Below, one piece after another: positions 21,888-52,152 of a stretch of 64,000 nt of DNA; the stretch's first letter is position 1, and each line of letters begins with the position of its first letter. Made by a program: the position numbers and the translations under genes. The notes under the pieces are model-generated. The model saw only the letters and a list, made by a program, of their open reading frames with translations, did no database searches and was not told where the DNA came from. The stretch covers positions 39,641-103,640 of the forward strand of contig KV424031.1 of NCBI GenBank assembly GCA_001632435.1. The letters are read 5' to 3'. This DNA is from Calocera cornea HHB12733. Its lineage: Eukaryota > Basidiomycota > Dacrymycetes > Dacrymycetales > Dacrymycetaceae.

Positions 21888-23273
21888 GCCAATGCCCTAT
21901 TGGGAGCGGCGGTGCGCGGCTACTAATGGTGGGACGAAGAGCATAGACTGTTGTTGTAATGTGTACCAGTGATTCCAACCAATTCACTTCTCTGGATCTT
22001 CTCAACGTGATGATAACGGCGCACGCTCCGACAGGCTGATCGGGAGCCATGTGGTCGAACGCCGCCCCATTCCTTAAGCAACCTGCTCGCCTGTGCGACC
22101 TACCGTAATGTGATGAGCCGGAACGGCCCATGTTTGTCGAAGCCTCTCCAAAATACACAGTACTCGAGTAGCCAGTCCATTGCAGACTGATAGTCCGACC
22201 GAGCTCTCCGGTAATCATGATGATATGCGATATGGGCGCACGGGCAGCAGCCAAAAATAATCCTCCTAAACACCGTCCAGCTTGGGCGCGAAGAGTGCGC
22301 GCGCCCTCGCGCCGGTCGGTCGGCTTCTTTTCCGCTGCTGCGCCTCTTCCCGCAAGGCAAGTTGTTGCCGGCCAGCGGCGAGCGCATTGTACCCTGTACT
22401 TACTGTAGGGACACACGATTTCGACTATTCAATGAACAAGGAGACGAGGCCGGCTAGACAGTCTCGTTAAAGCGATGTCGCCGCCTTCGCTCGCCGCAAG
22501 TCGTGCTTCCGCTTGCTTTGATTGAGCCTTTACAGAAATGCGCGCTATTCGCCTCAGGTTCGAACGGCAAAACTACTGTACAGTCGCACCCCACCTCAAC
22601 TCTCGCCACTTCCCCTCGTATCTGTTCATCCATTGTCTGAAAATTTGCCACAAAGTCCGGCAGGACAATGAACGTGTATCCCAAACGATCAAAGGCGGCC
22701 CTGTCCGATTGTCCCAGAAGCCACGGCGCTGCGTGCGAAGTGTGCACGGCAGACTGACACAGCCGCATCAGATGTCGTCGGCCCATCAGACGTCTGCGAA
22801 TCCCTGGGCCACGTAGTGGTCCAGGTTTTTTGGGGGGGAGAAATTCGCTGCATTTTTCGCCAAATCCGGTAATTACGTCCGGGCTCACGTGTATGCTTCC
22901 GCTAGAGTATCCGTGCATCTGCGCGCAGTTGCCCGCCTCTTCATAGGTCCACTGCCCGCCCCCTCGTGCTCGCCCCGCCCGCCCCATAGTGTTAAATCAG
23001 CCACCCACCGCTGCCCGCCTCCTGCTGTAATGTACATAATGGGCTCCTTCGCATGGGCCGGCCTCCCCCCAGCCCTTCTCGGTACACTGCGCATGGATTC
23101 TACTCATGCAAGCCCGGGGCGTTACACTTTCGCGCCGGTCGATGCGCTCCAATTGCATCACATCTAGCTTCATAAACCAGCCATTTCACCCTTATGCGCA
23201 TGGCTGGTTGTACTCAGTGGAAAAGGAGATATAACGTTGGCTTTGTGCGCAGTGTTTCTCAACTCTCTCCCCG
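21888..23273. other. Intergenic region between ATM1 and the Helitron helicase gene
   Basis: No supported gene. From about 23089 the TGCGCA word of the downstream element starts (23089, 23195, 23246), so the 5' end of the Helitron is probably within or just before this stretch. I could not place its 5' TC terminus. Confidence 0.45.
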
Positions 23274-26200
23274 ATGCACGCTCACTATAGCGTTATAGAA
23301 AGCACTATTCGGTTTCAAGATGGGACTGTGGAGCCGCTGTCCGTACTCAACCTGCGATATTCGTTCGAATTCCTCGTCCGCACTACACACTTTGTCCCGG
23401 CTGCCGACGATCGGGTTTCTCTGCTCGCACCCCTTGTGCCTGTCTTGGAGTCGTTCGATTTCTTCAAGAAGCCCGACCTCTTGGACATTGCGCAGTGTGT
23501 TGGCTACGCGGTACCCGCTCGTGCGACTCGGAGTACGATGATCCCCTCGCTGATCGCCCATATCCATACGGCTGAAGACTTGCTGCTCATGTTCCTCTGG
23601 GTATTCAAAGGTCGACCCCCCCGCGATTATGAAGGTACATCTCGACGGCCCGCCGCTGATACTCTGCGCTCGGGTACTGTGCCTGCGAAGCGGCGTTCCG
23701 ATGACCATGCGCATCGTCCCTCCGATCGAAGCAACGAAGAATCGTTTCCTCCTCCCTACTCCGAAGATCTCGTGCGGACTATAATTTCCGAGTACACTGA
23801 TTCTGTCAGCACGGAAAATCTGCGTACTGTCGTCTGTGCATCTTGCGCAGAGGGTGTCCGTGCCGCCGCCAGTCGGTCCATGTGTGTGGAAGACGTCGAC
23901 TTTACTGTGTTGACGAACCCATTGCTTCCGTCGCATCTTCGGCCTATCGGGTATAACCTCTGCGCATATTCGAATGCAATCCTCGAGCCGGCTGGTTTAT
24001 CCAATGCAAACGAATGCGAGGGCAACGTCACACTATGCACACCTTGCCATAGTTATCTACGAGCAAACAAGAAACCAGCACTCGCTTTAGCCAACCAGTT
24101 CTACTATGCGCATGATCATGTGCCATCTGCCGTGCAAGACGCCTTCAATCATTCTACTTTCGTTGATCGTCGACTTGTGGCCCGTTGTTCCACCACAAAA
24201 ATCTGCTTTCGTTATTTCGATAACCCGGAAAGCCGTTTGTATCGAAACGGGTTCGATGGAATGCAACGTTATTCCCGCGGCAATGTCCTTGTTTTGCCCC
24301 AGGATACCGCCCGGCTGCACAACGTCTTGCCGCCTCCCATGGACGATGTGCGCGACAGTTTCGTGGCAATTTTTGCAGGCCATGAGCCTCCTACACCCGA
24401 GATGTTGCGCAGAGTTCAGCCTGTAAAGGCGAATGCAAATACTGTGCGGACAATTATCGCTTTTCTGCTGGAACGTAACAAGGCGTACACCTGTACCACG
24501 GAAGAGTTCCCAGATGGGCCAGCAACCTTCTCGGCCCGCAACTTCTCGACACTTTTCCCGGATGCTGAAGGACAATGCGCACAGTCTACTATCCTTCCCT
24601 GTGTCGAGGTCGGTCATGTCCAACTGCAAGACCCACAATCGGCTGTGGAGTCCGATATCAGTGACAGGAATGTCTTTCAAGATGCGATCATCGAGCCGAC
24701 CGACTTTTTTGTGGAAGCATCTGGTTACACGACGGCATCTTCGTCTACAGCGTCGTATGACGCTATGAAGGCCGATGCCCTTGCGCATTGTCTCGATCGT
24801 CGTGGAACATTTTTGGTTTCTACCAGTGGTACTCGTCCTGTACAAGACTTTCGCAATGAGTACCTGTTGACCTGGATGTTTCCACACCTGGACCCGTTTG
24901 GGCTTGGTGGGTTCGATGACCCCAGAAGATCACCGCCGGTGTCAATGTCACGACAACTCGCTCATATGCTTCGACTCGCCGACCGACGATACCAACAGGA
25001 CCCGGCATTTGCATTCGTCTTTCACAACATCATTCAGAAAAGACAATCTCTGCGCGAAGTTCGCTTTTGCATCCCAGAGGGCCGTCATCAGCAAATCGTT
25101 GAGAATCTTCAAACTATCGACCCTGAAGTACTGGCAAACCTTGCGCATCGTCTGAAGGGCAATCCTTCGGCTCAGCCAAAGAGCCCAGAAGAAGTTATTG
25201 CCATGCGTGTACTGCGACATATACAAATGTTGCGCAAAGATGTGCCTGGTTCCGATGCGTATAAGCGGTGTCGGCGGAATGAAATCCGTTCATTGGTGTA
25301 CCGATATGGCTCCCCTGCATTCTTCATCACGATAACTCCCTGTGATGTGGATGGGTTGTTATGCGCATTGGCCATTGATGGTTACAAGAACGCTGAGCAA
25401 CTTCGACTTGGCACTACTCGTCAAACTCGCTTCCACAGAGCAATGCAGGTGGCCCATCATCCTGGCATCGCAGCCTCTGTCTTCCATGACACCATGCTTA
25501 GGTTCCGGGACATCATTTTGCGCATAGGAGATGGGCCTGGCCTATTTGGCGATTGTACTGCATGGTATGGCATGGTCGAAGCTCAAGGCAGAGGCACATT
25601 GCATTGTCATATGCTTGTATGGATTGATGGCAATCCGACACCGACCACTCTGCGCAAACGGCTGCAAGAAGACCATGGGTTCCAGGCACGAATGATTACT
25701 TGGCTGGAGTCGATTATTCAGACGGAATTGCCCGGCGATACCGAGGTTGTTGAAGAGCCGTGCGGCGCACTACCTATGCCCAAGCTCTCAAAAGAATCTA
25801 TCGACCCTCGTACTGCCGCATTTCCAGATTTGCGTCTCTGTGGTGTCGACTGGCATTCTGCTTTCAATGCGCATGTTAAAGCACTTGTGGAGCGAAACAA
25901 TTGGCATGAACATCGCGCAACGTGTTGGATTCACCTACGTGCTGGTGAAGAGCGTTCTGATGAGAAGTGTCGAATGCGCATGGATGGTACTACTCGCAAG
26001 ACGTCGGAAATCGATCCCCAAACAGGCGCCATCTTGTTACGACGTCTGCACCCTCGCATCAATGAGTACAACAACGTCATGATGTTCTTGTTGCAGTGCA
26101 ATATGGACATTCAATACCTTGGTTCTGGAGAGGCGTCACGCGCTGCGCTTTATTATATCACCGACTATATCACCAAATCAAGTCTGAAGGTGCATGCCGG

Positions 26201-29200
26201 CATGACAGCCCTTATATATGCACTTCAGAAGAATCGAGACAAATTTGCGCAGAGTCCCGAGCTGGGTCCCAATGTGCAGAGCAAGAGTCTCGTCAACAAA
26301 TTGCTGAACAGCATGATGGCCCGGCAGGAGGTGTCACACCAACAAGTGATGAGTTATTATGTTGGTGGTGGTGATTGCTACAAGTCCGACAAATTCGCCA
26401 AGCTGCACTGGGGTTTCTTTTCGTATCATGTCGCCAAGTGGGAGCAGTCAATGTCCAACAATGCGCAGAGTGACACGGATGCTGCCAGTTTGTCAAGTGA
26501 TGATGATGCGCAGAGTGACAGCGAAAATATGGAAGAAAATGATCTTCGGTGGTCGGTCAAACCAACACTGTCCTTGACAGTTGAAGAGGGTTCGGTCTCA
26601 GCAGGGAGCCAACTGTACGATTATATATTTCGACCAGCAGCTTCTCCTTTCACCGAATACTGCTTATACGACTTTGTTCGGTGGTGCGAGAAGGACATCA
26701 TTCCAGCAAAAGAACGATGCGCAGCGTCTCCATCTTCGTCCCAACTTTCTGCTGCATCAAGTGACTCAGATGAGTCCCCTGCACATCGCGGGCGGCCATG
26801 CCTTCCACGAGGGCACTTCATGCACGACCATCCACAACACTCTACGCACTGGTTGAGACAACGGTCAGGAGCTGTTGTTCCCGATATTTCTGGGCAGTCC
26901 ATACCTCGCCGTGAATCCGGGGGGGTTCGAAACGAAGCTTGGTGCAGAGCCATGCTCATATTGTTCCAACCATGGCGACAACTTGCAGATTTGTACAACG
27001 ATGCGCACAGTTGGCTGGACGCTTTCGATCATACTACTTTTGACTCGTTCCATATGTCCGTCATGGACAATATGGATGTGTTAAACGACTCGAAGGAGGC
27101 GAGGGACAGTGATTTACGGTCAAAGAAGCGTCGAACTCGCCTTGCGCGTCTTGCTGCAAATGCGGAAGCCTTTGAACAATTTCAAGACCTGCTCGGTGGT
27201 GACGATATTTTGGAGCAAGACGAACCTGCTTTGGGCGAGTTTGAAGGACAAGAAGACACACCAGCATTCCTCATGTCTCTGGACTCTGCGCAGAGATCTT
27301 TGAATGAAGGCCGTGTTCAATCTGCGCTTTCCCACCTTGCACACATTACCCAGATCGGTCGCATGCCAGATCATATGAGCATTGATGAAGACGATCGTTC
27401 CTCTATCAGGCAGCATGTCTACACAGATACTGCGCAATTGAAAGCACTTGCATCTGAACTACTACAATGGAAGAAGGATAAACGTGTACAGAAGACTGTG
27501 GTCGTTTCCCACAGACGGTCGGACCATCCGCCAGATACGAACATCGTTACTGCTGTCACCACGGAAAATAGGGCGGCATTTGTATTCAGACACTGCGCAG
27601 AGTTCCCAATCCCAGTCAATGATGTTGGCCTTGCCATGCAGCAAGTTATCACGGAACAAAGTCTGGCTTCTAATGCAGAACAACTCAGAGCTCTGCGCAT
27701 AGTGGCCAATCACCTTTCCGAAGCACACCATCAGCAACTACTATTGTACATTGGTGGTTGTGCGGGTACCGGAAAGAGCCATGTGATTCGCAGCATCGAG
27801 GCTTTATTCACTATTCTTGGTATCCGTGATTCCCTGCTTCTCAGCGCACCGACTGGAGCTGCTGCGGTTGTTATCGGCGGTTTTACCATCCATGCGCTTA
27901 CTCTCTTGCCTGCTATGCGCGGCAGAGCAGTAAATGACAAAGATCTGCAAGAAATATGGAACGGAGTTCGCTGGTTGGTGATCGACGAAATATCGATGGT
28001 TTCCGCCAATTTTTTGTATGAAGTCTCCCAGCGAATCTGTCGAGGAAAGCGGACGAGCGATGACCTACCCTTTGGTGGCATCAATGTCATCTTTACTGGT
28101 GACTTTGCGCAGCTGAAGCCCTTCAGTGCTGCTTCACTTTACAGTCATCACTTGGTCAAGCATATCATTGGTCGAACGGCAAACAGTGCGCATGGTCAGG
28201 AAGGTCTTGCCGGTGCATTGTACTGGCGGCAATTGTCGGATGCTGTTATGCTCACTGCGAATGTTCGACAAGCAAACGATCCCCGGTGGGCGAACCTTCT
28301 GAATCGGATACGTGTTGGGAAACCAAAGCTGAACGATGCGCATTGTGAGAATGATTTTTCTCAACCAGATCATTGCACATTGAGTACTCGGTTGCTATCA
28401 AACATTGCCTCCCTATCTTCTCAGGATGCAATGGCTTTCCTCGATGCTCCCTTCATTGTTTGTACAAAGGATATCCGGGACGCCTTGAACCTCACTTTGG
28501 CTCGGCGGCACGCTGCTACCTTGCGCACTGCTTGCATCCTCTATTTCGCTCAAGATTCGCTTGTACACAACCCAATCACTGGATTTTTGCAAGAGACGCT
28601 CTGGTCATTGCCCATCAACAGGACCGACGATGCTCCACCTTTCATGCCAATGTTCGTGGGTATGAAGATTATGCTCACCGAAAATCTTGCTTTGTCCCGT
28701 GGGCTGGTGAATGGTACTACAGGTACCATAACTGGTGTACGATACAACACCGACTCAGATGGCCGTCGGTTTCCTACCGCGGTTTATATCCACATTCCAT
28801 CTTCGAACTCTGCGCAAAGTGGTTTACCTGCCCACAACATCTGTATTCAGCCGTCGACGAAGCGGTTCAAATATGACACAACAGACCACAATGGGCAACT
28901 TCGAGTATTCACCATCACCCGCACTTATCTCCCGCTTCTGCCGGCGTATTCGTATACCGACTATAAAAGTCAAGGCCGCTCTCTGGATCGTGCAGTTGTG
29001 GACTTGGATGGCTGTCGGAATATCCAGAGCGCATATGTCATGCTGTCTCGTGTCCGGCGGTTGGAAGGTCTTGCCATCCTTCGACCCTTCCCTTCCGCAC
29101 TATTGAGTACAAGCCCCCCAGATGATCTCACGAAGGAAGTGGCTCGACTGCTCGCCATTTCAAAGGATTCAGCCATTCGGTATCCGCCCTTTCCAGATGG

Positions 29201-29204
29201 CTAG
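23274..29204 (+). CDS. Helitron Rep/Pif1-family helicase (RepHel), 1976 aa, intact single exon
   Basis: The N-terminal third has Cys pairs (VCASCAEGV, then CEGNVTLCTPCHSYLRANKK), a Helitron zinc-finger-like region. The Helitron_like_N block contains FVFHNIIQKRQSLREVRFCI. The HUH endonuclease motif is GRGTLHCHMLVWIDG at residues about 770-785, and the tyrosine region is AALYYITDYITKSSLKVHAG at about 955-975. The C-terminal SF1B Pif1-type helicase has Walker A GGCAGTGKSHVIRS (about 1493-1506), motif Ia APTGAAAVVIGGFTIHAL, Walker B WLVIDEISMVSANFLYEV, motif III INVIFTGDFAQLKPF, ENLALSRGLVNGTTGTITGV, and motifs V/VI TDYKSQGRSLDRAVVDL and SAYVMLSRVRRLEGLAIL. It nicks and unwinds one strand for rolling-circle transposition. 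All catalytic motifs are present with no stop. The DNA motif TGCGCA occurs about 29 times inside, often forcing Ala-Gln-Ser or Met-Arg-Ile/Leu-Arg codons. Confidence 0.95.
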   Translation: MHAHYSVIESTIRFQDGTVEPLSVLNLRYSFEFLVRTTHFVPAADDRVSLLAPLVPVLESFDFFKKPDLLDIAQCVGYAVPARATRSTMIPSLIAHIHTAEDLLLMFLWVFKGRPPRDYEGTSRRPAADTLRSGTVPAKRRSDDHAHRPSDRSNEESFPPPYSEDLVRTIISEYTDSVSTENLRTVVCASCAEGVRAAASRSMCVEDVDFTVLTNPLLPSHLRPIGYNLCAYSNAILEPAGLSNANECEGNVTLCTPCHSYLRANKKPALALANQFYYAHDHVPSAVQDAFNHSTFVDRRLVARCSTTKICFRYFDNPESRLYRNGFDGMQRYSRGNVLVLPQDTARLHNVLPPPMDDVRDSFVAIFAGHEPPTPEMLRRVQPVKANANTVRTIIAFLLERNKAYTCTTEEFPDGPATFSARNFSTLFPDAEGQCAQSTILPCVEVGHVQLQDPQSAVESDISDRNVFQDAIIEPTDFFVEASGYTTASSSTASYDAMKADALAHCLDRRGTFLVSTSGTRPVQDFRNEYLLTWMFPHLDPFGLGGFDDPRRSPPVSMSRQLAHMLRLADRRYQQDPAFAFVFHNIIQKRQSLREVRFCIPEGRHQQIVENLQTIDPEVLANLAHRLKGNPSAQPKSPEEVIAMRVLRHIQMLRKDVPGSDAYKRCRRNEIRSLVYRYGSPAFFITITPCDVDGLLCALAIDGYKNAEQLRLGTTRQTRFHRAMQVAHHPGIAASVFHDTMLRFRDIILRIGDGPGLFGDCTAWYGMVEAQGRGTLHCHMLVWIDGNPTPTTLRKRLQEDHGFQARMITWLESIIQTELPGDTEVVEEPCGALPMPKLSKESIDPRTAAFPDLRLCGVDWHSAFNAHVKALVERNNWHEHRATCWIHLRAGEERSDEKCRMRMDGTTRKTSEIDPQTGAILLRRLHPRINEYNNVMMFLLQCNMDIQYLGSGEASRAALYYITDYITKSSLKVHAGMTALIYALQKNRDKFAQSPELGPNVQSKSLVNKLLNSMMARQEVSHQQVMSYYVGGGDCYKSDKFAKLHWGFFSYHVAKWEQSMSNNAQSDTDAASLSSDDDAQSDSENMEENDLRWSVKPTLSLTVEEGSVSAGSQLYDYIFRPAASPFTEYCLYDFVRWCEKDIIPAKERCAASPSSSQLSAASSDSDESPAHRGRPCLPRGHFMHDHPQHSTHWLRQRSGAVVPDISGQSIPRRESGGVRNEAWCRAMLILFQPWRQLADLYNDAHSWLDAFDHTTFDSFHMSVMDNMDVLNDSKEARDSDLRSKKRRTRLARLAANAEAFEQFQDLLGGDDILEQDEPALGEFEGQEDTPAFLMSLDSAQRSLNEGRVQSALSHLAHITQIGRMPDHMSIDEDDRSSIRQHVYTDTAQLKALASELLQWKKDKRVQKTVVVSHRRSDHPPDTNIVTAVTTENRAAFVFRHCAEFPIPVNDVGLAMQQVITEQSLASNAEQLRALRIVANHLSEAHHQQLLLYIGGCAGTGKSHVIRSIEALFTILGIRDSLLLSAPTGAAAVVIGGFTIHALTLLPAMRGRAVNDKDLQEIWNGVRWLVIDEISMVSANFLYEVSQRICRGKRTSDDLPFGGINVIFTGDFAQLKPFSAASLYSHHLVKHIIGRTANSAHGQEGLAGALYWRQLSDAVMLTANVRQANDPRWANLLNRIRVGKPKLNDAHCENDFSQPDHCTLSTRLLSNIASLSSQDAMAFLDAPFIVCTKDIRDALNLTLARRHAATLRTACILYFAQDSLVHNPITGFLQETLWSLPINRTDDAPPFMPMFVGMKIMLTENLALSRGLVNGTTGTITGVRYNTDSDGRRFPTAVYIHIPSSNSAQSGLPAHNICIQPSTKRFKYDTTDHNGQLRVFTITRTYLPLLPAYSYTDYKSQGRSLDRAVVDLDGCRNIQSAYVMLSRVRRLEGLAILRPFPSALLSTSPPDDLTKEVARLLAISKDSAIRYPPFPDG

Positions 29205-29742
29205 GTAGTAAACAATGCGCATCGTCTATGTAATACATGATGTCTTCTAAGTGGCTTTTCCTGTTCACCAGCCCCATGCTAGCCTCTATCCAATACCCTT
29301 GTACTCTCGTTGTTACAGTGCCCTCACAACTCTGCGCATTGACGGCCAACGCCATTGCAAGCCATTATTAGTATGTCACTCGCCCTGACAACGCCACCTC
29401 AGGTGTATCCGCCCCTATGTAACACGCCACCGCATGTCTTGCCCGCCCTTACCCCGCCATTTCAAATTAATGCGCCATAGCCTGCCATCCCAAGCCATCG
29501 CAACGCCTCCTTTTTGTCCATGCATTCTATGCGCATTGGTGAATCGCAATGGACAACATCTGCGCATTGTCAGCCTCTCTCAAGCCACTACAAGCCTCCA
29601 CTGTGCTTTTTCATGGATCTCTCGCCTGACTCTTCACTGGCAGCGTAGTGTATGGCTTGCACACGTTGATTCAAGCCACTTTCACTTGTTATAAGGACGC
29701 TCTCTTTGCGCATTGTCAACAACCATCTCTTACTACTCCACC
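29205..29742. other. Spacer inside the Helitron
   Basis: Non-coding stretch after the helicase with TGCGCA at about 29215, 29332, 29529, 29561 and 29707, four of them TGCGCATTG. It contains several near-copies of the word GCCATTGCAAGCC/GCCATCCCAAGCC, suggesting old short repeats. It presumably carries the promoter of the next gene. Confidence 0.5.
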
Positions 29743-30859
29743 ATGGTCGTTAAACGCAAGAACGAGGATGGGGAGGTGCAGTCAAAGAATAAACAGTACG
29801 CAATTATCCCGTCCAGCCTAAACTATACACTTATTTCATTTTAGGGCAAAGACAGCTTCTGATACTGTATCTACTCCTTCGACAATCAACGATGAAGAGG
29901 CACCCCATGGGGTCACTCACAGTACTATCGCAGGAGCGAATGCTCCAGATCAACAGTGCGCATAGCATAACTCCACTGCAATGAACATACTCTCATTCGT
30001 ACGCAGGTCGGACAGTGCGGTGGACAACTATGCGCAAATGTCTGACAAATGGCGTGCCAATAGCGAAGTAGCGAATGGGCGTGCCGAAGAGTACCCCTCC
30101 GTGAAGTTGGAAGGATTCGAACCACCTCTGTTGACAAGGCTCATGACTATGCGCAAATATAGTGACCGCACCCGTGGTTTCTATTATGTGACGACAATGC
30201 CAGAAACACTGCGCTTTGGTCATGATCAAGCGTTCGATATGAGCAATTTTGTAGTACGAGGTGATAATTACCCCGTACACATTTGGGTCATTGGTCGAAT
30301 CACGGCTCTCAACTTTGTCAAAGACGACGGGTCCTGGCCGGATCAAGTGTACATGAGTATCCACCCTCTAGTGAAGGATGACACCCGTGCAGCGACCCGT
30401 ATCACCAATCTCTATTCCCGTCCGCGCCAGTGTACGTAAATCACCCTTTATTCACGATTTGGACTGACTTTGCGCAGGGTCGGACTTGAATCCTTGGGGC
30501 ACCATAATTGCCAATCACTTCCAGAAGGTATACAATTCGGACAAGCCAGTAAGTCCTGTGCGCACAGTATATGGACTCTACTCATCAGACCATAGGCGAA
30601 AGAATTCACTTCCATCTACGATGCGAGGAAGGAAATGAAACCGAAGAAAGCTATGAAGCAGTTGCCTGCATCTACTTTGAAGAAAGGCGACCTCGTCTGC
30701 GCAGAGATGCGTGTGAAGAAACGATTCGATAAGAAAGATGACGATATTCCAAAGAAAGATCGTCCCCATACCATCAGCTTCCAGCTACAGTCCGTGTTTT
30801 ACCTCGAAGAGGGTGTGGAACCCACAGATGACGATAAGGATGTGTGCTATGACTTCTGA
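29743..30859 (+). CDS. Unrecognised Helitron-borne protein, 307 aa, five exons
   Basis: Exons 29743-29795, 29845-29955, 30007-30431, 30478-30548 and 30596-30859; phases fit. It starts MVVKRKNEDGEVQSKNKQ (basic, nuclear-type) and has a Ser/Thr-rich linker. The globular core has YYVTTMPETLRFGHDQAFDM, YPVHIWVIGRITALNFV and WPDQVYMSIHPLV. A helical link follows (NPWGTIIANHFQKVYNSDKP), then LKKGDLVCAEMRVKKRFDKK and HTISFQLQSVFYLEEGVEP. The beta-rich VHIWVIGRITAL and LVCAEMRVKKRF..FQLQSVF segments could form an OB-like or other single-strand-binding fold, but this is a guess. Proteins of this general kind are frequent as orphan, transposon-linked genes in Agaricomycetes. Two introns begin or end with TGCGCA. 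The function is unknown; its position suggests a transposition accessory role. Confidence 0.68.
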
Positions 30860-31095
30860 CCATGCGCATTGTTCTTCCCTTTTTATTGGCTCTCTATGCG
30901 CAAAGCTTTTTCTCCCGTAGTACGTAAACTGTACCCTACGACATATATATATATACCGCGTCCTTAAACGGCCATGCGCACGTGGGATCGTCATCGTGGC
31001 TGGCATTGAATTTGGTGCCGCTGGGTGAATCTTAAAAGCCCATGTCCACATAGCCTCCTTTCCCTTGCTCGCCCCCTTTCCTCCCAACGCCTTAC

Positions 31096-31440
31096 ATGGT
31101 CGCCCCACAGGATACCAGTGCGCAGTGGGTATCCCCCCCCCTCCCGCCATGTGCGGCGTTACTCATTGCTTACTGCAGGCACTCTCCCGGTACGCTCTCT
31201 GCGCAGAGTCGAACCCATGTAAACTTCGACACCCCACTCCCATTCGGATGGGCTGCGTCGAACCGCGACACGATTCCGTTCGAGCTGGCGGAGATCGACA
31301 GTCTTGCGAATGAAATCATTGAACTGAACGTCAAATTGCACCACGCCAACGACACCATTTATCGCCAGCATTCCGCCATCCTCACGTTACAACGGCTTTT
31401 GAGAGAGCGATCGACGACAGACACTGCGCAGAGTTCTTGA
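31096..31440 (+). CDS. Small coiled-coil-like protein, about 114 aa (start uncertain)
   Basis: The frame from 31096 ends TGA at 31440. The convincing part is the C-terminal 60 residues: PFELAEIDSLANEIIELNVK then LHHANDTIYRQHSAILTLQR and LLRERSTTD, a helix with heptad-like Leu/Ile spacing. The N-terminal half (MVAPQDTSAQWVSPP...) is low-complexity and may contain an intron. No family is recognised. It lies between two other plus-strand genes of the element. Confidence 0.45.
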   Translation: MVAPQDTSAQWVSPPLPPCAALLIAYCRHSPGTLSAQSRTHVNFDTPLPFGWAASNRDTIPFELAEIDSLANEIIELNVKLHHANDTIYRQHSAILTLQRLLRERSTTDTAQSS

Positions 31441-31630
31441 CCTTCGATTGTAACTTCTTCTTTCCCGCTGTGTTAATGTTATTCCGCTGCGCATAGGTTC
31501 CAGCCCCTTTTGCAAACACACTTAACGCCACGTGACAATGCGCTTCCGTCGGATGCAAACGGCGCGGTACCCATCCCCCGATCTAAGGGACTCTGCGCAC
31601 TGTGTTCCTTTGCTGATCAGCGCCGATACA

Positions 31631-32490
31631 ATGTCTCAGCCACCGCTGTCCCAAGAAGAGGACGACAACAACAACCACCCCCACCCAACTCGCCCAGTTC
31701 GCACCCAGGCCTACTGGACGCGCCTCGCAGCTAGGGTTCCCAACCGCGAAGCACCTGGCAACTGGGGGTACTTCTATGATTACGGCCGTGTTCAAAGCTC
31801 CGTACACTTCCACCTCCCTCTATGCGCATAGTCCCCTTTCCTCACAAATTCGCACAGACTCGAACGAACCCTCCAAACCCGCCGTCCACAAACACTGCGC
31901 AACGTGCTTCCACTCAACCACCCATGCCTCCCAACGCACCAACGCGTGGCCGCTCTGCCCGTGGCCGAGTTCCCCTGACGATTGCCCGCGGGACGGGCAG
32001 AGGGCAAGCTACCTTAAATCCGTCCGTCTTCCATCTCCCCACGTTGCATCTTTCTCATCCTCTGCGCAGCGTTTGGGAGACCCGTCTCATGGAAGATGCT
32101 GATGAAGAGGACGGTGAACTCGAAGTTGACAATGCGCAGAGTCCCTCCCCCTCTATGCCAGACGAGACTGTCGCGATCACGAACGTGTTGATGACGATGC
32201 AACAAGATCAGCTGGAGGACGATGCGCAGACAATCCGTACCTTGCGTGCTGACGTTCGTCGCCTCACCGATGAGGTCGCACGTCTTCAGCATGCCTATGC
32301 GCAAAGTCAGGAAGAACTTGCCCAGATGCGCGAACGCGATAGGGTGAATCAGCTCGACCAGCAAGAGCTCGCTCTCCTCCGTCAGCTCAATGGACTCCGC
32401 GCAACGGGCCAGCCTACGGGAGTGAAGCGGGCCAGAACCAACAGCCGCGGTAGCAGCAGCAATTATCCGCCTGGGGCAGGCTCATGGTGA
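31631..32490 (+). CDS. Helitron-borne coiled-coil protein with Arg/Gly stretch, about 271 aa
   Basis: Exon 1 is 31631-31787 (MSQPPLSQEEDDNNNHPHPT ... RTQAYWTRLAARVPNR ... GYFYDYG); the intron 31788-31831 ends TGCGCATAG; exon 2 runs to 32490. A second intron with GC donor (about 31999-32067, ending CTGCGCAG) is possible but in frame, so both lengths read through. The middle holds RGRSARGRVPLTIARGTGRG, an RG-rich nucleic-acid-binding type stretch. It is followed by an acidic segment (MEDADEEDGELEVDN) and a long helix (RTLRADVRRLTDEVARLQHA, then YAQSQEELAQMRERDRV and QQELALLRQL) that looks like a dimeric coiled coil. The C-terminal KRARTNSRGSSS is basic. Family unknown; the resemblance of layout to small nucleic-acid-binding accessory proteins is inference. 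Confidence 0.55.
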
Positions 32491-32606
32491 ACGATGCGCA
32501 GAGTTACATTGATTCTTAGCTACGAATACCATTACAGGCGCTCGAAGTGTAGTGCTACCCAGTTGATACGGTCCTTGTACTGCAAAGCTGTGAATAACGA
32601 TTCCAA

Positions 32607-34893
32607 TTATGCGCATAGTTCACTCACTCGTGAATCCCTGGAAGCAGTTGCTTCAATGACAATCCGCCAACGATGCGCATTGGGTGCCAAAATTGCTGCC
32701 TCAAACGTGGGAATGTACGCGCGATTCATCATCCAACCGTACATGGTGCCCGCCGTTTGATTCAACAAGCGGGTTGCCGCACCGTTGAAGACATGAATAT
32801 ACTTCGTCCATTGTTGCATACTCCCATCCTTAATCGCAAAGTTGAGGTGGTACCTAATTCTGTCAGAAAAACCTCTGCGCAAAGTACTCTTACTCACTTG
32901 GGACCGCGCACGGGAAATGTCACCCCACAGGCACGGCAAGTCCACGATTGGTCGGCGTTCTGCCACTCGTCCAGGAACTTCTTGTTGCACTCGTCGTACG
33001 GACAGCCGAGGTAGATATAGTCGGGCCGACCAATCTCCAGCTTAAGATTCGCCTCGATGTAGAACGTCGTCTTCGACTTTGCGCCAAGTTTCTTGTTGAT
33101 CGCGTGAGCAATACTGTACGTCGCATTCGGCATAACGAAATTGGGAAGGGGGTGTCCATCCGCGCTGTAACCGCCCGTAAGGGTACGCCACTGCGCATTG
33201 TCGTTATTCTCGCTCTGGTACCTTCACAATGCGCAGAGTTAGTTTGCGCACACCGCCTATCTCTTACACGTACCACTGCAAGAGACGTTGCGCAGAGGGA
33301 TTATTGTGGTCGAAAAAAACCCTTGTGTGCGCCCTCTCTGACTTCAGGCACGGCCCATTGAACCAACTGAGGGTCACCGCCTTTAGCAGCACCACTTGGC
33401 CTTCCCGCCCAATGAACTGGTTGCCGGTGTTGTCGAAGAAAACCCCACGGACGACGACCTTCGTGTCGTCCAAGAACCAGGCTTCGACACGGCTCGACGA
33501 CGGCGCTTGACGGTGACCCTGCGCAAAGTAAGGTTGTGTGTAATAAGACAGACAAGAACATACCTTCGTGGGCTTCGCACCCGGCAGTACCCCACTCGAG
33601 ATGCGGTTTGCCACCCTCAGCACGACCGCCATCAAGTCTGTCACACAATGAACGTCCCGATCACTCTGCGCAGAGTTCATCACCCACCGACAACCCTCCC
33701 TTGATCCATACGCTCAATCTCGTTGATGAGACTATAATTGAAGAATATCAGAGGCAGAGGCCCCGCCGGGATCTGACTCTAATCAGCCGAATGTTCCCAC
33801 CTCTGCGCAGAGCTCACCGCCGTCTTTGTCGTATGCTTGTCCCACACCAGCCTGTACTTGTGGGGTACGCGTCCATATTCATCCGGGTTCTCTGTCACTT
33901 CCGCTCCTTGAATGCGCCACGTCTATGCGCACAGTCAGCCGCCATCCTTCACAATGTCAATACTCTGCGCACCGTCCCGAACACCATGTCTGCCGTATTC
34001 TCCATAAAGTCCCCGAACGCCATGAACTCAATTTCGCCCGTGCGGTCGATAAGTACAACCATTTGTCGTCCGTGACGGGGAGGATTCTGCTCGTAGACGC
34101 GACACGCGAGATCTCTGCGCAAAGTCAGCCATCGGACACAAAGTGGTACTCCTCCACTCACACCCGCACACCCTTCCTGATCTGGGCCACCTCCGTAAAG
34201 ACCGCGTTCGGGTGCATTGGGACAACTACTGTGCGCGGAGTGATCGTCGTCGTCGGCTCGGGTGGGCGATCGCTGTTGCCTTCTGCGCGAACAGTGCGCC
34301 ACATGACGCGCTTTTGCGCAGCGTTTGCGGCACGTGCACGCGGAGCGTGGAGCTGCATGGGGAACCCGGCCTGCAAATGCGCATTGTCAGGTATCTCCCC
34401 AGTACCGATGTCCGGAATGGTGAAGATGTAGTGCTGGGACATCGACGCCCCCTCAAACCGGCCTGGATTGCGAAGTCGCGCATAGTCCTTGATAACCACA
34501 ACCCTGCAGCCCACGTCAGCTACAAACATTGCGCATAGTCCTGGTGCTTACCCCCTGTTAGACCCTTCCGGCGTCCCCTGCATATACTCGAACACCTCTA
34601 TCACCGCCCATACCGGCAGCGTCCCTGACGAGATCTCTTGGCGCATACGACCACGGGGAATGACGCGAAGGCAGCGGGTTGCGTCCGCCATAACAACTCT
34701 GCGCAATGTCAGTCTCGCCACGCTTCGCAGTCACAAGCACTTACGACCAATCCGCTGGCTGAGCCGGCTCGTTCCTCACCGGGTCCATGACAACATCTAT
34801 GCGCACAACTTGCAAGACGGCGTTGTAGTGATCCGGCTGACCAGTTCCCATAATGAGCAGAGCGCCTGGCGTAAGCGGCTTGGACGGATCCAT
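32607..34893 (-). CDS. RPA1-like single-stranded-DNA-binding protein of the Helitron (multi-exon)
   Basis: It starts at 34893: MDPSKPLTPGALLIMGTGQP, then HYNAVLQVVRIDVV, RCLRVIPRGRMRQEISSGTL and CRVVVIKDYARL (N-terminal RPA70 OB fold). The first exons are 34893-34745, 34698-34552 and from 34503. Next comes a DBD-A-like fold (DLACRVYEQNPPRHGRQMVV, LIDRTGEIEFMAFGDFME). A DBD-B-like fold follows (FFNYSLINEIERMDQG, AWFLDDTKVVVRGVFFDNTG, NQFIGREGQVVLLKAVTLSW). Last is DBD-C with the RPA zinc ribbon, YIYLGCPYDECNKKF and WTCRACGVTFPVRGPKWRYH (CX4C..CX2C), then YIHVFNGAATRLLNQTAG. The end is at 32607. RPA1 homologues are known Helitron passengers or partners that coat single strands during rolling-circle replication. 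Several introns end CTGACnnTGCGCAG or carry TGCGCA near the donor. I did not resolve every exon; no frame-breaking change was evident. Confidence 0.85.
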
Positions 34894-37123
34894 CGGGGCT
34901 GGTGAAAGTTAGACGGAGGGATCGAGAGACAAGTGCGACAGCTGGCATCGACGCCCCGACCCCACCCCCTATCCATGCGCAGAGTCATCTGCTTCCGTTT
35001 GCTCCCGCTCAGTGCCTGCGCTTCCCCTCGTGGCCCAGGGGTTGCGCGGAGCGGGTGCTATGCACGGATTGGGCAGCCTCAGGTCAGCCATCGATATCAT
35101 CATGTCGGCTTTGCGTGCGTAATTGTCGCATTGTCAGATCGCGCGGATCTGCCGATCAGGTTGTCATGGAAAACGCGCGCACCCGCGCGCACCCGACCTC
35201 TTACTCTACTCTGATGGTCGTCGTCCGTTGGTCTCGGTATCCGCATAGGCGTCGTCAGCCTTGTCGACTTCCAGTTTAGGTCAACTCAGGCAAGGAAGAA
35301 AACGGTCCGAGGCTCAGCCTCTACCCGTTATGCGCTTCAAGTCTATTACGTTACGCTACTGCATCACGCTGGGATGTAGGAAAATGTTTGCAGGATGTCC
35401 GGCGGCAAGAGGGAGCTGGGATCTGATGGGCACAGTATCCTGGAGCCTGGAGAGCGGTATGACATCAGCTCTGTGGGTTGTGCTCCGACGCGGGGACTGG
35501 CCCGGTCCATGGGATACAAGGGTAGCGGCGGGTGCAGCGGGAGAGGAGGACGGGCGGGAGTCACCCCCACCGGCGGCTATTTCCCACATTCGAGCCTTGG
35601 GCACCCTTGGTCTGGGCGCTTGTCAGACATCGTTGGATGAGACAGCGACGAGCGGCGGGCCGGGCCTGTGGAGGACGTCAACCTCCGCTGAGCTGCAACC
35701 TCTAGCCTTCGTCCAGGAGCGGCTCGCCGAGGGCGACTGGGTTCCGTGATAACGCCTACAGCACCACCGCCGACTAGCAGCATCAGTCAACCACTGATGG
35801 ACAAAGCCAATTTGAAAGAGTCAAGGCACCGCCCCTTGGGCCATCTCCCGCATCTCTCTCTCACTGTCATCTCCAGCGCGTCGGGCCCATCAGATGCGCG
35901 CCGAAGGTTCCGAAGGGGCACACGACCTACTTACTGAGCGCCCCGGCGGTAGGTGTCGGGTTTGCGTTTGGCATACGGGCTGTTCAGCTGTCAGGCAGGA
36001 TGGAGGGGAGAGGGGGAAGGGGGAAGGGAGGGGGAGGCGATCGGTAATGATCGAGCCCAGCAAGGGCTCTGCGTTCGGCACACGTAGGGTTCAGCCGAGG
36101 GCTGTGTCGCGTCTCGCGTGAGGCGGTGCGGGCTGATGGGCGTGCAAAGCCGGACGGACTCATGTGGTGATTATTGTTGGGATTGCGCGGGGCGGTGCGG
36201 CTGATGGGAGACGGTGGGTGGTGGTTGATGCGTGCACCCTGGTGGCGGGTCCGTGATGGGCTGGTTGGGCGACGAGCTTAGGAGGGTCGGACTGTGCCTT
36301 TGCGGGTGTCGCTGGCGAGCAAGTGCGAGGGTCGAGTAAGCAGGCCGCGGCGTGATCCGCGCTCTGCCGGGCGGGGTGCGGCGATTACCCAATGTATTGA
36401 TATTATGAATTCGCGGGATGGCTGTCTCTCACCACGGAGCGCACTGACGCACACTACTGACACGGAACATTATGGCACGGAATATAGGAGGGTGTGGGGG
36501 GAGGAGGGACGACCCTTGCGCTGTTTTACTTCGAGCGTGCAATCCCGGGCGAGGTGGTGGGCGTGGCTTTGGTGGGTGGCCCAGGGTGCGCGAGGACAGG
36601 GGGGGTGAGGAGGGGGAGCACCGCCTTGTGCGTCGCAGGGCTGGCGAGACAAGGCGGTGCACCACGCGGCAAGCGTCTGGTCCCGCGCATTCCCCCCCAA
36701 AGTCGCAACAGTCGTCCGCCTCGCCCCCCTCCCTGGCTCGCCCTCCAAGCTGACCCTCTCTCACGGCATACAACGGGCCATAAGTAGCGAGCGGTGCACC
36801 GCATCGCTCGACCCCCGACCCGCACCCTCGCAGAGTACAACAACACCGCGACACAGCGCATAGCGACAGCAGCGTACCCCCCCCCTCCCCTCCCCTTACC
36901 CGCCCCCCCGGCCTCGCAAAGCAAACCACACCGCAGAGTCACCGCCCTCGCCCATTCCTGTGCGTATCACACCCCGTCACAACCGCCACAGCTCTCACCC
37001 GGCAAACAGAATCTCACCTGACAGGAGCGCCCATTCCCGCTCGCTCGACCGCCACTCCTCCCATCCCCTTCCCGCCCGGCACACAGCAACACCATAAGTA
37101 ACCCACATCCACCGCCCGCCACA
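34894..37123. other. Intergenic region containing the Helitron's right end and the CRZ1-like promoter
   Basis: TGCGCA words stop at about 34976. An imperfect GC hairpin lies at 35004-35055 (CCCGCTC with GAGCGGG; inside, GCGC and CCCC with GGGG and GCGC). From about 35300 to 37120 the sequence is GC-rich host DNA with purine-rich runs (36001-36036, GGGGGAAGGG-type) and C-rich runs (36870-36910). I see no supported gene. The last 200 bp are the probable promoter and leader of the zinc-finger gene. Confidence 0.45.
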
Positions 37124-49500: not shown

Positions 49501-52152
49501 TTTCGTAATGACAGACTCTCCCTTCTTAGACAATACGGTGCACCATTGACGTACACCAGCGGCTCCTCCCGGAGGTTAATCCAAATAACCGTGTCCGTGT
49601 CCGCGTACGACTCCCGCAGGCGACTGACCATTTGATCGATGGCCTCGATGCTTGGTTGTCCAAGCGCATATATTCGGGTTCCAGGCATGTTGCGGAAGTT
49701 GATCGCTCCACGAATGCTGTCAGACGTCTCTCCAGTGTCTGCCTGGTGCCACTGATCCGACTTCAGCAGTGTGTTTGCTCGAAGGATGATGCCGCTCCTG
49801 TTCTGTACGATAGCTCAGATGAGAACGCCATACGTGTCAGATAACACAACGACCAACCTTGACAACCAGATCTGCCCATTCATCCCCGACCACTTGCCCC
49901 CCGCTGATCCCCAGCTCGTTCTCAATAAGGGCATCAAGCTGGCCCTTCCTTGAACCTCGCGAGATGGCCGATAAATCCGCGACAGGGGCGAAAATCTCGA
50001 GCCGATTGGCATTCTTGCGCATATATCGGACTTGGCTGGATACAGTAGATTAGCATCAAGATGGGACGAGAATGCGCATTCTCCTACTTCCAGATCTCGA
50101 CACGGGTCTGCATCCAAGAGAAGAACGTCTCGTCTTTGTGGTTTTCGACGAAGCTGGCATACGCAATGATGAAGAAACTGGATCTACTTCAGTATTTGCA
50201 CTATACTTGCGGTGTTATTGCTCACTATTTCTCCAGAGCACGGGCTGCGCGACTCAGATAGTTACGTCTCTTTTTGTCGTCCATGCTCGTTAAGGAGTAC
50301 TTTACACGGAGGGAGAGGATGTCCTCTCGCAGGTTGATCACATGATCGCCTATAGGAGAATCAATTAATCGGTTACCAATCAGGATTCAGCCGACTCACA
50401 GCTATCAATGACATCGTCAACCAACTGCTTGGCCTTCAGCCCATCATCCAAGAATCCCAATAGAGACAGGATGACCGAAAAGTTGCCCTTAAACGCCTTG
50501 CGCAGGTTATCCATCAGTGCCGGCTGCGCTAACAGAAGCTCGACTGCAGAGAGCGACTTGGGGTTCTGCATGCCTGAGCGAGCTTCTGTTAGGTAGCCAT
50601 GCGCACGAGTCACGGAAGACATACTATTTTGGATGATATAGGTAATGCGCAGCAGTGATAGGCTCTGCTCTTGTTGTCTGACGGCTTGCTCGATGGCGAT
50701 GGCCGCTTGGGAACCGGCAGGCTGAGGGATATCAGCTTCGAATCAACCGGAGCAGGATGGAGGAACGCACCGTAGACGTGCCCGGCGTGTTGGTGGACAA
50801 GAATGGATCTTCATGACCTTTTTGTATCAATAGCTTCCGTCGAAGGATACAAGCAGCAACCATTGCAAAGGTAGCTGCTTTCAATTTCAGTATGACAATG
50901 AGACGCATGAGGAGAAATAGGCTGACTCCGTACAACACCCATACCGCAGGAAAAGAGGAGGGAGGTATGAACCGGATCGGCATTATTGATGATTGCGGCA
51001 TACGCATCGAGGTAGTTGTCCTGTACACATCCACGTTAGTTGGTAGACATATGGGTGGTACTGAGGTTGCGCACCTCAATGGGTCGATCGGGAGAAATCG
51101 GTATACTAATCCACATAATGAGATACAAGTAGCAATGATAGCTCACTGAACGCACCGATGATATTCCACCTTCCAGCCCTCCGCGACAATCTGCTCGACC
51201 ACCTCCCGGGATGTCAGCACGCAGCTGGAATCGATCTCAGTCCAGGTCGGGAACATCTCCTCGCCCTCGTCTATGCCTCTAGTCAGCGAGATTCAGAAAA
51301 CGAAAAGGACGAGCATACTGATTTCGTGATGCGTCAAAATCATCCCTCCATAACGCGCTGCCTCATCTAGGATATCCTGCTTGAGCCTGCGCTCGATGTC
51401 CTCTAGGTTCTCCACCCGGTCCGACAACGAGAGTGAGTCTCTAGGCTGGGAGGCATCGCGCAGCACGAAGGATCGATCCCCGATATACACTGTACATTGG
51501 TTAGTATGTGAACATGGTGCTGAATACGTGCATGCGCACCTATTGGCTCCTCTCGCGTCGAGAACCATACGCATTGTCCTGCTGGTGTCGAGTCCGGCCG
51601 ACATCGCAAGAGGGACAATATGGCTTTCAACCCCTGAATACGGGGCTGCGCGCAGCCGAACACGTTCAGGCCGGTCTGCCCTGCCCTGCGGAAGTTGGGT
51701 GCACCTTGCAGGTTGAGCTCAAGATCTAGGGCTCGACCTGTGCATCTATGAGAGCATGAACACCAAAGCAGCGAGATGCGGACACACCAGTGGGATAATG
51801 ATCCGTCTTCAGAATAAATCCACGCGTCAGCACGCTGCCTTGTCTAGATCTCACCACAGCTGGTGGAGCCCTGAGGAGATGAATGAGGGTGTTATCAGGT
51901 TGTGTTCCGTGTTGGTCCGTCCCGTTGCCATTTAGGGCTGCTGAGTGGATGAAAGATGACAGCGTCGATGAACGCCGTGCCATCCGCACGACCGCGGTCG
52001 TGATCGGAGTACTGCTCCGCTGTCCTCCTTGCACCATCCTGAGACGAAGATGTGTATGCAGGATGCCACGACGGAGTGAAGGACAGAGCAGAGAGGGGAA
52101 TATATGCAGTGCGGGAGCGCTCGCCGTTCGGATGCGGCGAAACGCTAGGCAT
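46509..52152 (-). CDS. Paladin-like protein with three PTP/phytase-like domains (multi-exon; start uncertain)
   Basis: A long minus-strand gene of many short exons. An early exon reads SVLTRGFILKTDHYPTG, then RALDLELNLQGAPNFRRAGQ and LNVFGCAQPRIQGLKAILSL, followed by YIGDRSFVLRDASQPRDSLS and YGGMILTHHEI. Three CX5R active-site loops are visible: LLFSCGMGVVR then TATFAMVAACILRRKLLIQK (50948-50928), VLNCQLGRGRSTISS (49007-48987) and IFNCQMGRGRTTTGMVAASL (47261-47241). Each sits after a conserved Ser/Asp-rich lead-in, as in paladin and the fungal inositol-hexakisphosphate-domain proteins. The last exon is FSYALLIVLANYLIHTRS to SRRSFE, stop at 46509. Paladins are described as pseudo- or low-activity phosphatases in signalling or phosphoinositide control. 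All three loops keep Cys and Arg here. The N-terminus lies somewhere between 52184 and about 51980; MPSVSPHPNGERSRTAYIPL at 52152 is one candidate. Confidence 0.82.

What the first reader, a model, noticed from the sequence alone, without database searches (positions are those of the whole stretch)
23089..34981. Dense, oriented TGCGCA words throughout a Helitron
By eye I count 77 TGCGCA in 11.9 kb (about 1 per 155 bp), against about 6 in 1-23,000 and about 18 in 35,000-64,000. The words cross the helicase exon, introns, spacers and the opposite-strand RPA1 gene without regard to strand. More than half (about 48) read TGCGCAnnGT in the plus orientation, where about 5 would be expected by chance; many extend to the palindrome CTCTGCGCAGAG. 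Coding sequence is bent to fit, with repeated Ala-Gln-Ser from TGCGCAGAGT. This suggests DNA-level selection or a mutational/insertional process acting on the whole element: binding sites for Rep, RPA or a host factor, a strand or identity tag for rolling-circle replication, or chromatin positioning. I know of no described Helitron with such a property.
Basis: partly seen in the sequence, partly recalled or inferred. Interest (0 to 1): 0.88.

Follow-up and report, generated by a model that had tools for sequence, protein, structure and literature searches.

The report
Transposons studded with lineage-specific DNA words
In one wood-decay fungus, several unrelated kinds of jumping gene are tiled end to end, protein-coding parts included, with short palindromic DNA words whose spelling is shared within a lineage and changes as a set between lineages, which looks like a family of DNA-binding proteins reading transposon identity, though no such protein has been found.

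Summary
The density is real: 76 TGCGCA in 23,089-34,981 (6.4/kb) against 8 and 18 in the flanks (0.35 and 0.62/kb). The "orientation" is not: flanks are symmetric (TGCGCAnnGT 45, ACnnTGCGCA 37), so the word is a 14-bp palindrome, ACnnTGCGCAnnGT. It is 5- to 6-fold over synonymous codon shuffles, evenly spaced, and mostly held at the same sites in two Helitron relatives (65-68% protein identity) while the spacer bases drift. Related Helitrons of this genome (Calocera cornea) carry other words: AnnnnGCGCnnnnT in one clade, CACGTG in another, no clear word in more distant ones. Unrelated cut-and-paste transposons (PIF/Harbinger-like, another DDE_Tnp_4 element, a MULE) carry GCGC-type words too, and some homologous Harbinger sites read AC..GT, AG..CT or AA..TT by lineage. 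This fits sites for homodimeric DNA-binding proteins acting in trans, with switched specificity. Purpose is inferred: I favour a VANC-like anti-silencing or self-recognition system. The reader protein is unidentified, and my test for protection of word CpGs failed its control. Rolling-circle-only and strand-tag readings are disfavoured. A strong, surprising finding with an open mechanism.

The parts
22801..35060 (+). Whole Helitron element, about 12.26 kb, starting TCCCTGG after a host A and ending GGGTGCTA before a T
   Evidence: Limits are where the window copy (C118) and the C36 copy stop matching; coordinates. The 3' end reads CTA|T, so CTRR is not strictly met.
22803..22825 (+). Inverted repeat CCTGGGCCAC-GTA-GTGGTCCAGG at the 5' end, followed by T6 and a run of G; similar in the C36 and C79 copies
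   Evidence: Sequences printed; 78 and 82 bp aligned at 85% and 77%.
23088..34981 (.). Field of 77 TGCGCA words, consensus rACtmTGCGCAkaGTy; mean spacing 156 bp, CV 0.56; 25 are full ACnnTGCGCAnnGT
23274..29204 (+). RepHel: DUF6570, Helitron_like_N (Rep) and PIF1 helicase, 1,976 aa, one open frame, 29 words
   Evidence: Pfam; shuffles; codon alignment.
29743..30859 (+). Gene 2, 307 aa, exons 29743-29795, 29845-29955, 30007-30431, 30478-30548, 30596-30859 (stop included); no Pfam match; relatives near RepHel (same contig, within about 10 kb) in all three word clades and in some elements without a clear word
   Evidence: identical to CALCODRAFT_511253; homologues; Pfam; AF2 pLDDT 41, unusable.
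29956..30477 (+). Words overlapping predicted splice sites of gene 2: donor GTGCGCA at 29956, acceptor TTTGCGCAG ending at 30477
   Evidence: Intron sequences.
31285..31440 (+). Short conserved frame ending ...TTDTAQSS, 65% identical over 51 aa in C36; function unknown
   Evidence: ORFs; tblastn.
31631..32490 (+). Gene 3, coiled-coil protein, probably with an intron, weakly conserved (32% over 133 columns in C36); no basic DNA-contact region seen by eye
   Evidence: ORFs; coiled-coil matches below cut-off; tblastn.
32607..34908 (-). RPA1-like gene in pieces on the opposite strand
   Evidence: Pfam matches below cut-off: Rep_fac-A_C (E 0.094) and REPA_OB_2 (E 0.0036); homologous to RPA-like genes on C11 and C2; genome family.

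Best explanation
The words are binding sites, spread evenly over the whole transposon, for a homodimeric sequence-specific DNA-binding protein ('reader') that acts in trans. Unrelated transposons share a reader by carrying its word. The most likely purpose, by analogy with VANC and VANDAL in Arabidopsis, is self-recognition that counteracts silencing: a site every 110-240 bp would keep the entire element, exons included, open or unmethylated. Shown: the words, their symmetry, selection, even spacing, different words in different lineages, and sharing between superfamilies. Inferred: a protein reader, its dimerism, and anti-silencing. Step by step: DNA-level selection for dimer sites about 0.9; reader dedicated to transposons rather than a general host factor about 0.6; anti-silencing as purpose about 0.45.
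For: Symmetric flanks. TGCGCA 4.9- to 6.2-fold over synonymous shuffles in three copies, and an excess of the other words in their own clades only. Pattern scan: best scores 61-119 in loci with GCGC-type words and 20-38 in those with CACGTG, null maxima 4-13. Shared word sites 23, 21 and 24 of 27-30, against 10-13% of aligned hexamers. Identity over 68 shared site pairs: spacers 0.71-0.72, outer pair 0.90/0.87, beyond 0.54-0.69. Even spacing: 0 of 5,000 random placements as regular in C118 and C36. One word per clade on a tree with 13 of 13 inner branches well supported. Eight of nine Harbinger loci carry words of three spellings, and some homologous columns switch flanks, e.g. column 2429: actctGCGCaaggt, aggttGCGCagcct, aactgGCGCcagtt. 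91 of 161 genome-wide ACnnTGCGCAnnGT lie in five elements, 42 kb of 32.1 Mb; for ACTCTGCGCANNGT 36 of 48. Silencing pressure: 37 of 54 substitutions between three near-identical Harbinger pairs are CpG transitions; stops of the decayed Helitron copies stand at CGN codons in 8 of 9 (L009) and 5 of 5 cases (L007, CGN in at least one relative). Precedent for sharing: VANC6 motifs in unrelated AT9TSD1 (PMC5735166 section 10).
Against: No reader protein was identified. Gene 2 has relatives near Helitrons without a clear word and none on the contigs of the small Harbingers; its fold could not be predicted; Harbinger ORFs show no convincing Helitron counterpart. Helitrons C28, C62, C84 and Harbinger C63 have no clear word, so words are not essential. 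Protection of word CpGs from decay is not shown: GCGC outside words is retained as well (8 of 10 in L007; 18 of 39 against 19 of 39 for motif sites in L009), and in near-identical Harbinger pairs motif CpGs differ as often as others (4 of 41, against 5 of 43 for other GCGC and 28 of 287 for the rest). Mean spacing differs between clades (156, 159, 114 and 244 bp), so it is not one fixed nucleosome length. Host stretches are not wholly silent in the scan: winA scores 21 (CG-periodic) and winC 12. Many Harbinger columns have a site in one lineage only. CACGTG is also a generic bHLH/G-box site (recalled), and its genome-wide count was not taken. One genome only; no methylation, chromatin or binding data.
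Confidence: 0.5

Rival explanations
1. The words are sites for host chromatin or general regulatory factors (Cbf1-like for CACGTG, another factor family for GCGC words). Transposons collect them to keep nucleosomes spaced and promoters open; different clades lean on different host factors or reflect former hosts.
For: Spacing of about 156 bp is near a nucleosome repeat (recalled) and evenness is significant; unrelated superfamilies share words, which a host factor explains easily; CACGTG is a classical host bHLH site (recalled).
Against: The AC word is rare outside transposons: of 48 distinct ACTCTGCGCANNGT sites 36 lie in five elements, 4 on C258 near an RPA-like match, 1 in another worded Helitron, leaving 7 singles. 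Different outer bases at homologous sites of transposons in one nucleus are awkward for one fixed host factor. Spacing differs between clades.
Confidence: 0.22
2. The words are target sites of a DNA-modifying enzyme (all are CpG-centred palindromes) that writes or protects a self mark on the transposon, in the manner of a restriction-modification or TET-type system.
For: Every word found has a central CpG and a two-fold axis. Fungal DNA transposons of many lineages carry TET/JBP dioxygenases (PMC12730594, start of abstract and passages). CpG decay suggests that methylation or a like process acts here.
Against: No methyltransferase or dioxygenase was seen among the element ORFs scanned with Pfam (not every ORF was scanned). 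A partly degenerate 14-mer looks more like a binding site than an enzyme site. Word CpGs decay like others in near-identical pairs.
Confidence: 0.13
3. The words serve Helitron rolling-circle replication (Rep, helicase or RPA binding, a strand tag).
For: They fill a Helitron, and an RPA1-like gene is present. RPA-like genes also occur in the worded C2 and C11 stretches.
Against: The word has no orientation, and cut-and-paste Harbingers, in which only transposase and Myb-like genes were seen, carry the same words.
Confidence: 0.06
4. A mutational or insertional process, or codon and composition bias, produced the words without selection on them.
For: Drifting spacers and GC-rich words could suggest a mutational bias.
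Against: 5- to 6-fold excess over synonymous shuffles, conservation at homologous sites with a 14-bp profile, and different words in sister clades in the same nucleus. Tandem duplication is not the source: one 32-bp array in the whole element.
Confidence: 0.03

Closest known systems
VANDAL transposons and VANC anti-silencing proteins (Arabidopsis; Hosaka et al. 2017, PMC5735166: abstract, part 1 of 2 of the Results and sections 9 and 10 read; Sasaki et al. 2023, PMC10398659: abstract and outline only)
   Same: Short DNA motifs repeated within a transposon family; the motif differs between related families; an unrelated transposon (AT9TSD1) carries the motifs of one VANC; host silencing is the proposed driver.
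   Different: VANC motifs are not palindromic, lie in non-coding regions and often form tandem repeats. Here the words are palindromes, evenly spaced, not tandem, present in exons, introns and spacers, and found in Helitron, Harbinger-like, DDE_Tnp_4 and MULE elements. No reader is known.
Autonomous Helitrons with RepHel and RPA (plants, fungi, animals; recalled)
   Same: Rep, PIF1 helicase and RPA1-like genes; 5' TC; insertion between A and T.
   Different: Two further genes (gene 2, gene 3) and the word field; the paper listings show no report of such words.
TET/JBP-carrying fungal DNA transposons (PMC12730594: start of abstract and passages)
   Same: Several transposon superfamilies of fungi share one strategy said to help escape silencing.
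   Different: There an enzyme gene is carried; here DNA words are carried, and no such gene was seen in the ORFs scanned.
Bacterial DNA uptake sequences, Chi, KOPS (recalled)
   Same: Short words over-represented across coding DNA and read in trans by a protein.
   Different: Those mark whole bacterial genomes and are usually asymmetric; here the words mark single transposon lineages inside a eukaryotic genome and are palindromic.

Membership tests
Helitron (element in the window) | Rep (HUH) domain and PIF1-type helicase in one protein | tested here: met
   Helitron_like_N 104 bits and PIF1 69.5 bits, both over cut-off
Helitron (element in the window) | 5' TC, 3' CTRR, insertion between A and T | tested here: inconclusive
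   5' A|TC in three copies; 3' end reads GTGCTA|T in two copies, CTRR not strictly met
PIF/Harbinger (C34 element) | DDE_Tnp_4 transposase plus Myb/SANT-like gene | tested here: met
   PF13359 49.8 bits and PF12776 29.1 bits, both over cut-off
PIF/Harbinger (C34 element) | Terminal inverted repeats and 3-bp target duplication | tested here: met
   Perfect 21-bp arms, which take in one base of the TGA printed outside GAGCC...GGCTC at both ends
VANC/VANDAL-type sequence-specific anti-silencing | Transposon-lineage-specific short motif, diverged between related lineages | tested here: met
VANC/VANDAL-type sequence-specific anti-silencing | Motif also carried by unrelated transposons | tested here: met
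   Harbinger C34 and C243 share the Helitron word
VANC/VANDAL-type sequence-specific anti-silencing | Motifs in non-coding tandem repeats | tested here: not met
   29 of 77 words lie in the RepHel CDS; Tandem Repeats Finder gives one 32-bp array in the element, 24517-24548
VANC/VANDAL-type sequence-specific anti-silencing | Element encodes a VANC protein (DUF1985/DUF287) | tested here: inconclusive
   No such Pfam match in the ORFs scanned, but not every ORF was scanned and a different protein could serve
VANC/VANDAL-type sequence-specific anti-silencing | Reader binds the motif and removes DNA methylation | not testable with these tools
   Needs ChIP or EMSA and methylation data

The most novel reading that the evidence does not exclude
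A transposon identity code: in one nucleus, at least four kinds of transposon (Helitron, PIF/Harbinger-like, another DDE_Tnp_4 element, MULE) carry, through coding and non-coding DNA alike, evenly tiled CpG-centred palindromic words read by a diversifying family of transposon-dedicated dimeric proteins. Each lineage has its own spelling, spellings are swapped as whole sets, and small transposons free-ride on readers kept by others. Protein-coding sequence of the transposon is remodelled to fit the code.
Probability: 0.4. Interest if true: 0.95.

Novelty: new variant of a known kind. Interest (0 to 1): 0.88.

Why it matters
If the words are what they look like, the DNA alone gives the targets of an unknown family of sequence-specific readers, together with natural specificity-switch experiments (the same site spelled three ways in sister transposons). 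That would make it directly testable how transposons recognise themselves, evade silencing and share or compete for trans-acting helpers, and it would extend the VANC idea from Arabidopsis non-coding repeats to coding DNA of several kinds of transposon in a fungus. It also warns that selection on transposon coding sequence can be for DNA sites rather than protein.

Tried and rejected
Orientation of the words: rejected by counts. Word CpGs protected from methylation-driven decay: looked good in L007 (23 of 26 kept in words against 55 of 133 elsewhere) but failed its controls (GCGC outside words, and near-identical Harbinger pairs). Gene 2 as reader: relatives near Helitrons without a clear word, none on the contigs of the small Harbingers; fold prediction at pLDDT 41 was not taken to a fold search. 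Harbinger Myb or transposase resembling a Helitron protein: ORFs of 4 Harbingers against 15 Helitron stretches gave two marginal hits, E 0.004 and 0.008, taken as chance. RPA1-like gene as common reader: seen in worded Helitron, C2 and C11 stretches, not seen in the small Harbingers, and sequence-specific duplex binding would be unusual (recalled); kept as a weak lead. A nucleosome phase: pair-distance histograms show no clear peak by eye. Coding footprints of words in metagenome RepHel relatives P0005-P0007: no AH or HV excess, inconclusive because footprints are weak even in worded copies. RepHel in viral contigs: no match. Helitron locus L017 (C8) has 9 AnnnnGCGCnnnnT against 1.4, score 9 against null maxima 5.8-7.5; too weak to call. 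Rfam, genome contigs, phages, plasmids, E. coli genomes, NCBIfam, PHROGs, PADLOC and fold searches were not used. Paper searches list no description of such words; that covers only the open-licence library, and apart from the three papers named I saw listings only.
Full report
WHAT IS THERE. The window lies in a 32.1-Mb genome, named in database hits as Calocera cornea HHB12733. The element is a Helitron from a TC at 22,801 to about 35,060, with limits set by where it stops matching its C36 relative. It encodes RepHel (Helitron_like_N, PIF1), a 307-aa five-exon gene 2 without Pfam match, a coiled-coil gene 3 and, on the other strand, an RPA1-like gene known from weak Pfam matches and homology.

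THE OBSERVATION. TGCGCA occurs 76 times in 23,089-34,981 against 8 in 1-23,088 and 18 in 34,982-64,000. The flanks are mirror images: 45 TGCGCAnnGT and 37 ACnnTGCGCA; over 77 words, +3 is G in 65 right and 60 left flanks and +4 is T in 49 and 47. The feature is therefore a palindrome, ACnnTGCGCAnnGT, not an oriented tag. It crosses the RepHel CDS, introns, spacers and the antisense gene. Two words overlap predicted splice sites of gene 2.

SELECTION ON DNA. In RepHel 29 words are seen and 4.7 expected from 500 shuffles of synonymous codons; the relatives L006 and L007 give 30 against 6.1 and 27 against 5.0; no shuffle reached the observed value. On a codon alignment L005 and L006 share 23 of 29 and 30 words, L005 and L007 21 of 29 and 27, L006 and L007 24 of 30 and 27, while any aligned hexamer is identical in 9.9-13.2%. 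In the CACGTG clade sharing falls with distance: 17 of 19 and 25 for the close pair L011/L012, 6 to 9 of 19-25 with L010 (hexamers 6.6-6.7%). Over 68 shared TGCGCA site pairs, identity is 1.00 in the core by choice, 0.71 and 0.72 at the two spacer positions, 0.90 and 0.87 at the outer C/G and A/T, and 0.54-0.69 beyond; CACGTG has no such outer block. The spacers drift, and with them the amino acids, but the outer pair is held. Spacing is too even for chance: CV 0.56 (C118) and 0.59 (C36), random mean 0.98, 0 of 5,000 as even; C140 2 of 5,000, C67 7 of 5,000, Harbinger C34 87 of 5,000.

OTHER CLADES, OTHER WORDS. Searching the genome with RepHel gave 32 matching stretches; 12 near-full-length frames were compared. 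C118, C36 and C79 carry TGCGCA. C140 and C21 carry AnnnnGCGCnnnnT (56 and 29 in the first loci, 60 more in the C140 tail, 2.4-4.3 expected). C45, C67, C23 and C116 carry CACGTG (22, 19, 25 and 23 in CDS against 4.3-6.6), as does the C82 locus with a gene-2 relative (22 against 3.9). C28, C62 and C84 show nothing clearly above the null: best palindrome scores 8, 9 and 6 with null maxima 5.4-8.3, and best 6- and 7-mer scores 5-7 with null maxima 2.9-9.0. Other, mostly partial Helitron loci in the scan score 6-9. On a maximum-likelihood tree of 16 RepHel proteins (12 from this genome, 4 metagenomic) 13 of 13 inner branches are well supported and each word marks one clade.

UNRELATED TRANSPOSONS. 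A cluster of the same word on C34 turned out to be a PIF/Harbinger-like element: DDE_Tnp_4, Myb_DNA-bind_3, perfect 21-bp inverted repeats, TGA on both sides. Its 2.7 kb hold 18 TGCGCA. Nine transposase loci were found and eight carry words: C34 and C243 ACnnTGCGCAnnGT; C268, C198, C38 and C175 AGnnTGCGCAnnCT; C6 and C1 AAnnnGCGCnnnTT; C63 none clear. On a correctly oriented alignment some homologous sites are spelled per lineage, e.g. column 2429 actctGCGCaaggt, aggttGCGCagcct, aactgGCGCcagtt and column 1616 accttGCGCctggt, aacacGCGCagcct, aactgGCGCcagtt; many other columns have a site in one lineage only, so there is turnover too. AGnnTGCGCAnnCT occurs 183 times genome-wide against 38 for the reversed control. 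Two further clusters, of which only 4.0 and 3.0 kb could be fetched, hold a DDE_Tnp_4 transposase with a DUF6818-like frame just below cut-off (C2) and a MULE transposase (C11), both with an RPA1-like gene; that these genes lie in one element each is inferred from the spread of words.

MOSTLY IN TRANSPOSONS. 91 of 161 genome-wide ACnnTGCGCAnnGT (reversed control 37) lie in five elements covering 42.3 kb. For ACTCTGCGCANNGT (48 distinct sites, reversed control 1 per strand) 36 lie in those five, 4 on C258 near an RPA-like match, 1 in the C140 Helitron, and 7 are single. So the AC word is concentrated in transposons and I see no host regulon; the 70 other sites of the looser pattern were not all placed. 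For CACGTG no genome-wide count was made.

MECHANISM. Two-fold symmetry, two conserved half-site blocks with freer spacers, and even spacing point to a homodimer binding duplex DNA along the whole element. Different spellings at homologous sites mean that specificity has changed. Copies here lose CpG by transition: stops of decayed L009 and L007 stand at CGN codons in 8 of 9 and 5 of 5 cases, and 37 of 54 substitutions between near-identical Harbinger pairs are CpG transitions, which is what DNA methylation leaves. An anti-silencing role, as for VANC, is therefore my preferred reading. VANC6 offers a precedent for an unrelated transposon carrying the motif (PMC5735166 section 10). Against it: I could not show that words protect their CpGs, Helitrons without a clear word exist, spacing differs between clades, and no reader is known. 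Candidates are the RPA1-like proteins (seen in worded Helitron, C2 and C11 stretches), gene 3, and host factors; none is supported beyond co-occurrence.

VERDICT. Real, strongly selected, wider than reported and differently built. Filed as a new variant of a known kind because it looks as if it works like VANC targets, not because membership was shown: one defining feature (non-coding tandem repeats) was tested and not met.

Noticed in passing
L007 (C79) and L009 (C21): Decayed Helitron copies with CpG observed/expected 0.62 and 0.66 (other frames 0.87-1.22, except C84 with an open frame and 0.56) and stops all TGA, 13 of 14 at CGN codons: a footprint like CpG methylation and deamination.
   Followed up: yes
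L051 (C2:394600-398600), L052 (C11:339600-342600): RPA1-like genes related to the Helitron RPA1 beside a DDE_Tnp_4 transposase and a MULE transposase; the genome has many such RPA-like places (26 and 21 matches).
   Followed up: partly
L052 (C11:339600-342600): The word is nearly invariant there (AGGCTGCGCAGCCT) and many half-sites (GCGCAGCCTGG) occur, unlike the degenerate words of other elements; may be a young or amplifying set.
   Followed up: no
   Followed up: no
C258:3527-6456: Four ACTCTGCGCANNGT sites around an RPA-like match; probably a further worded element.
   Followed up: no
window 50016-51533: Seven TGCGCA in 1.5 kb of the right flank, without the AC/GT flanks; one (51068) fits AGnnTGCGCAnnCT.
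   Followed up: no
window 22803-22840: Inverted repeat followed by T6 and a G run just inside the Helitron 5' end, similar in three copies; a terminator-like hairpin at the 5' rather than the 3' terminus.
   Followed up: partly
window 29956 and 30477: Words double as predicted splice signals of gene 2 (donor GTGCGCA, acceptor TTTGCGCAG).
   Followed up: no
L038 (C67:133000-138699), ORF at 2082-2642 of the reverse complement: A frame that looks like a captured host gene (recalled resemblance, not searched) inside the CACGTG-worded Helitron stretch; comparing its word count with its host relatives would show whether captured DNA gains words.
   Followed up: no
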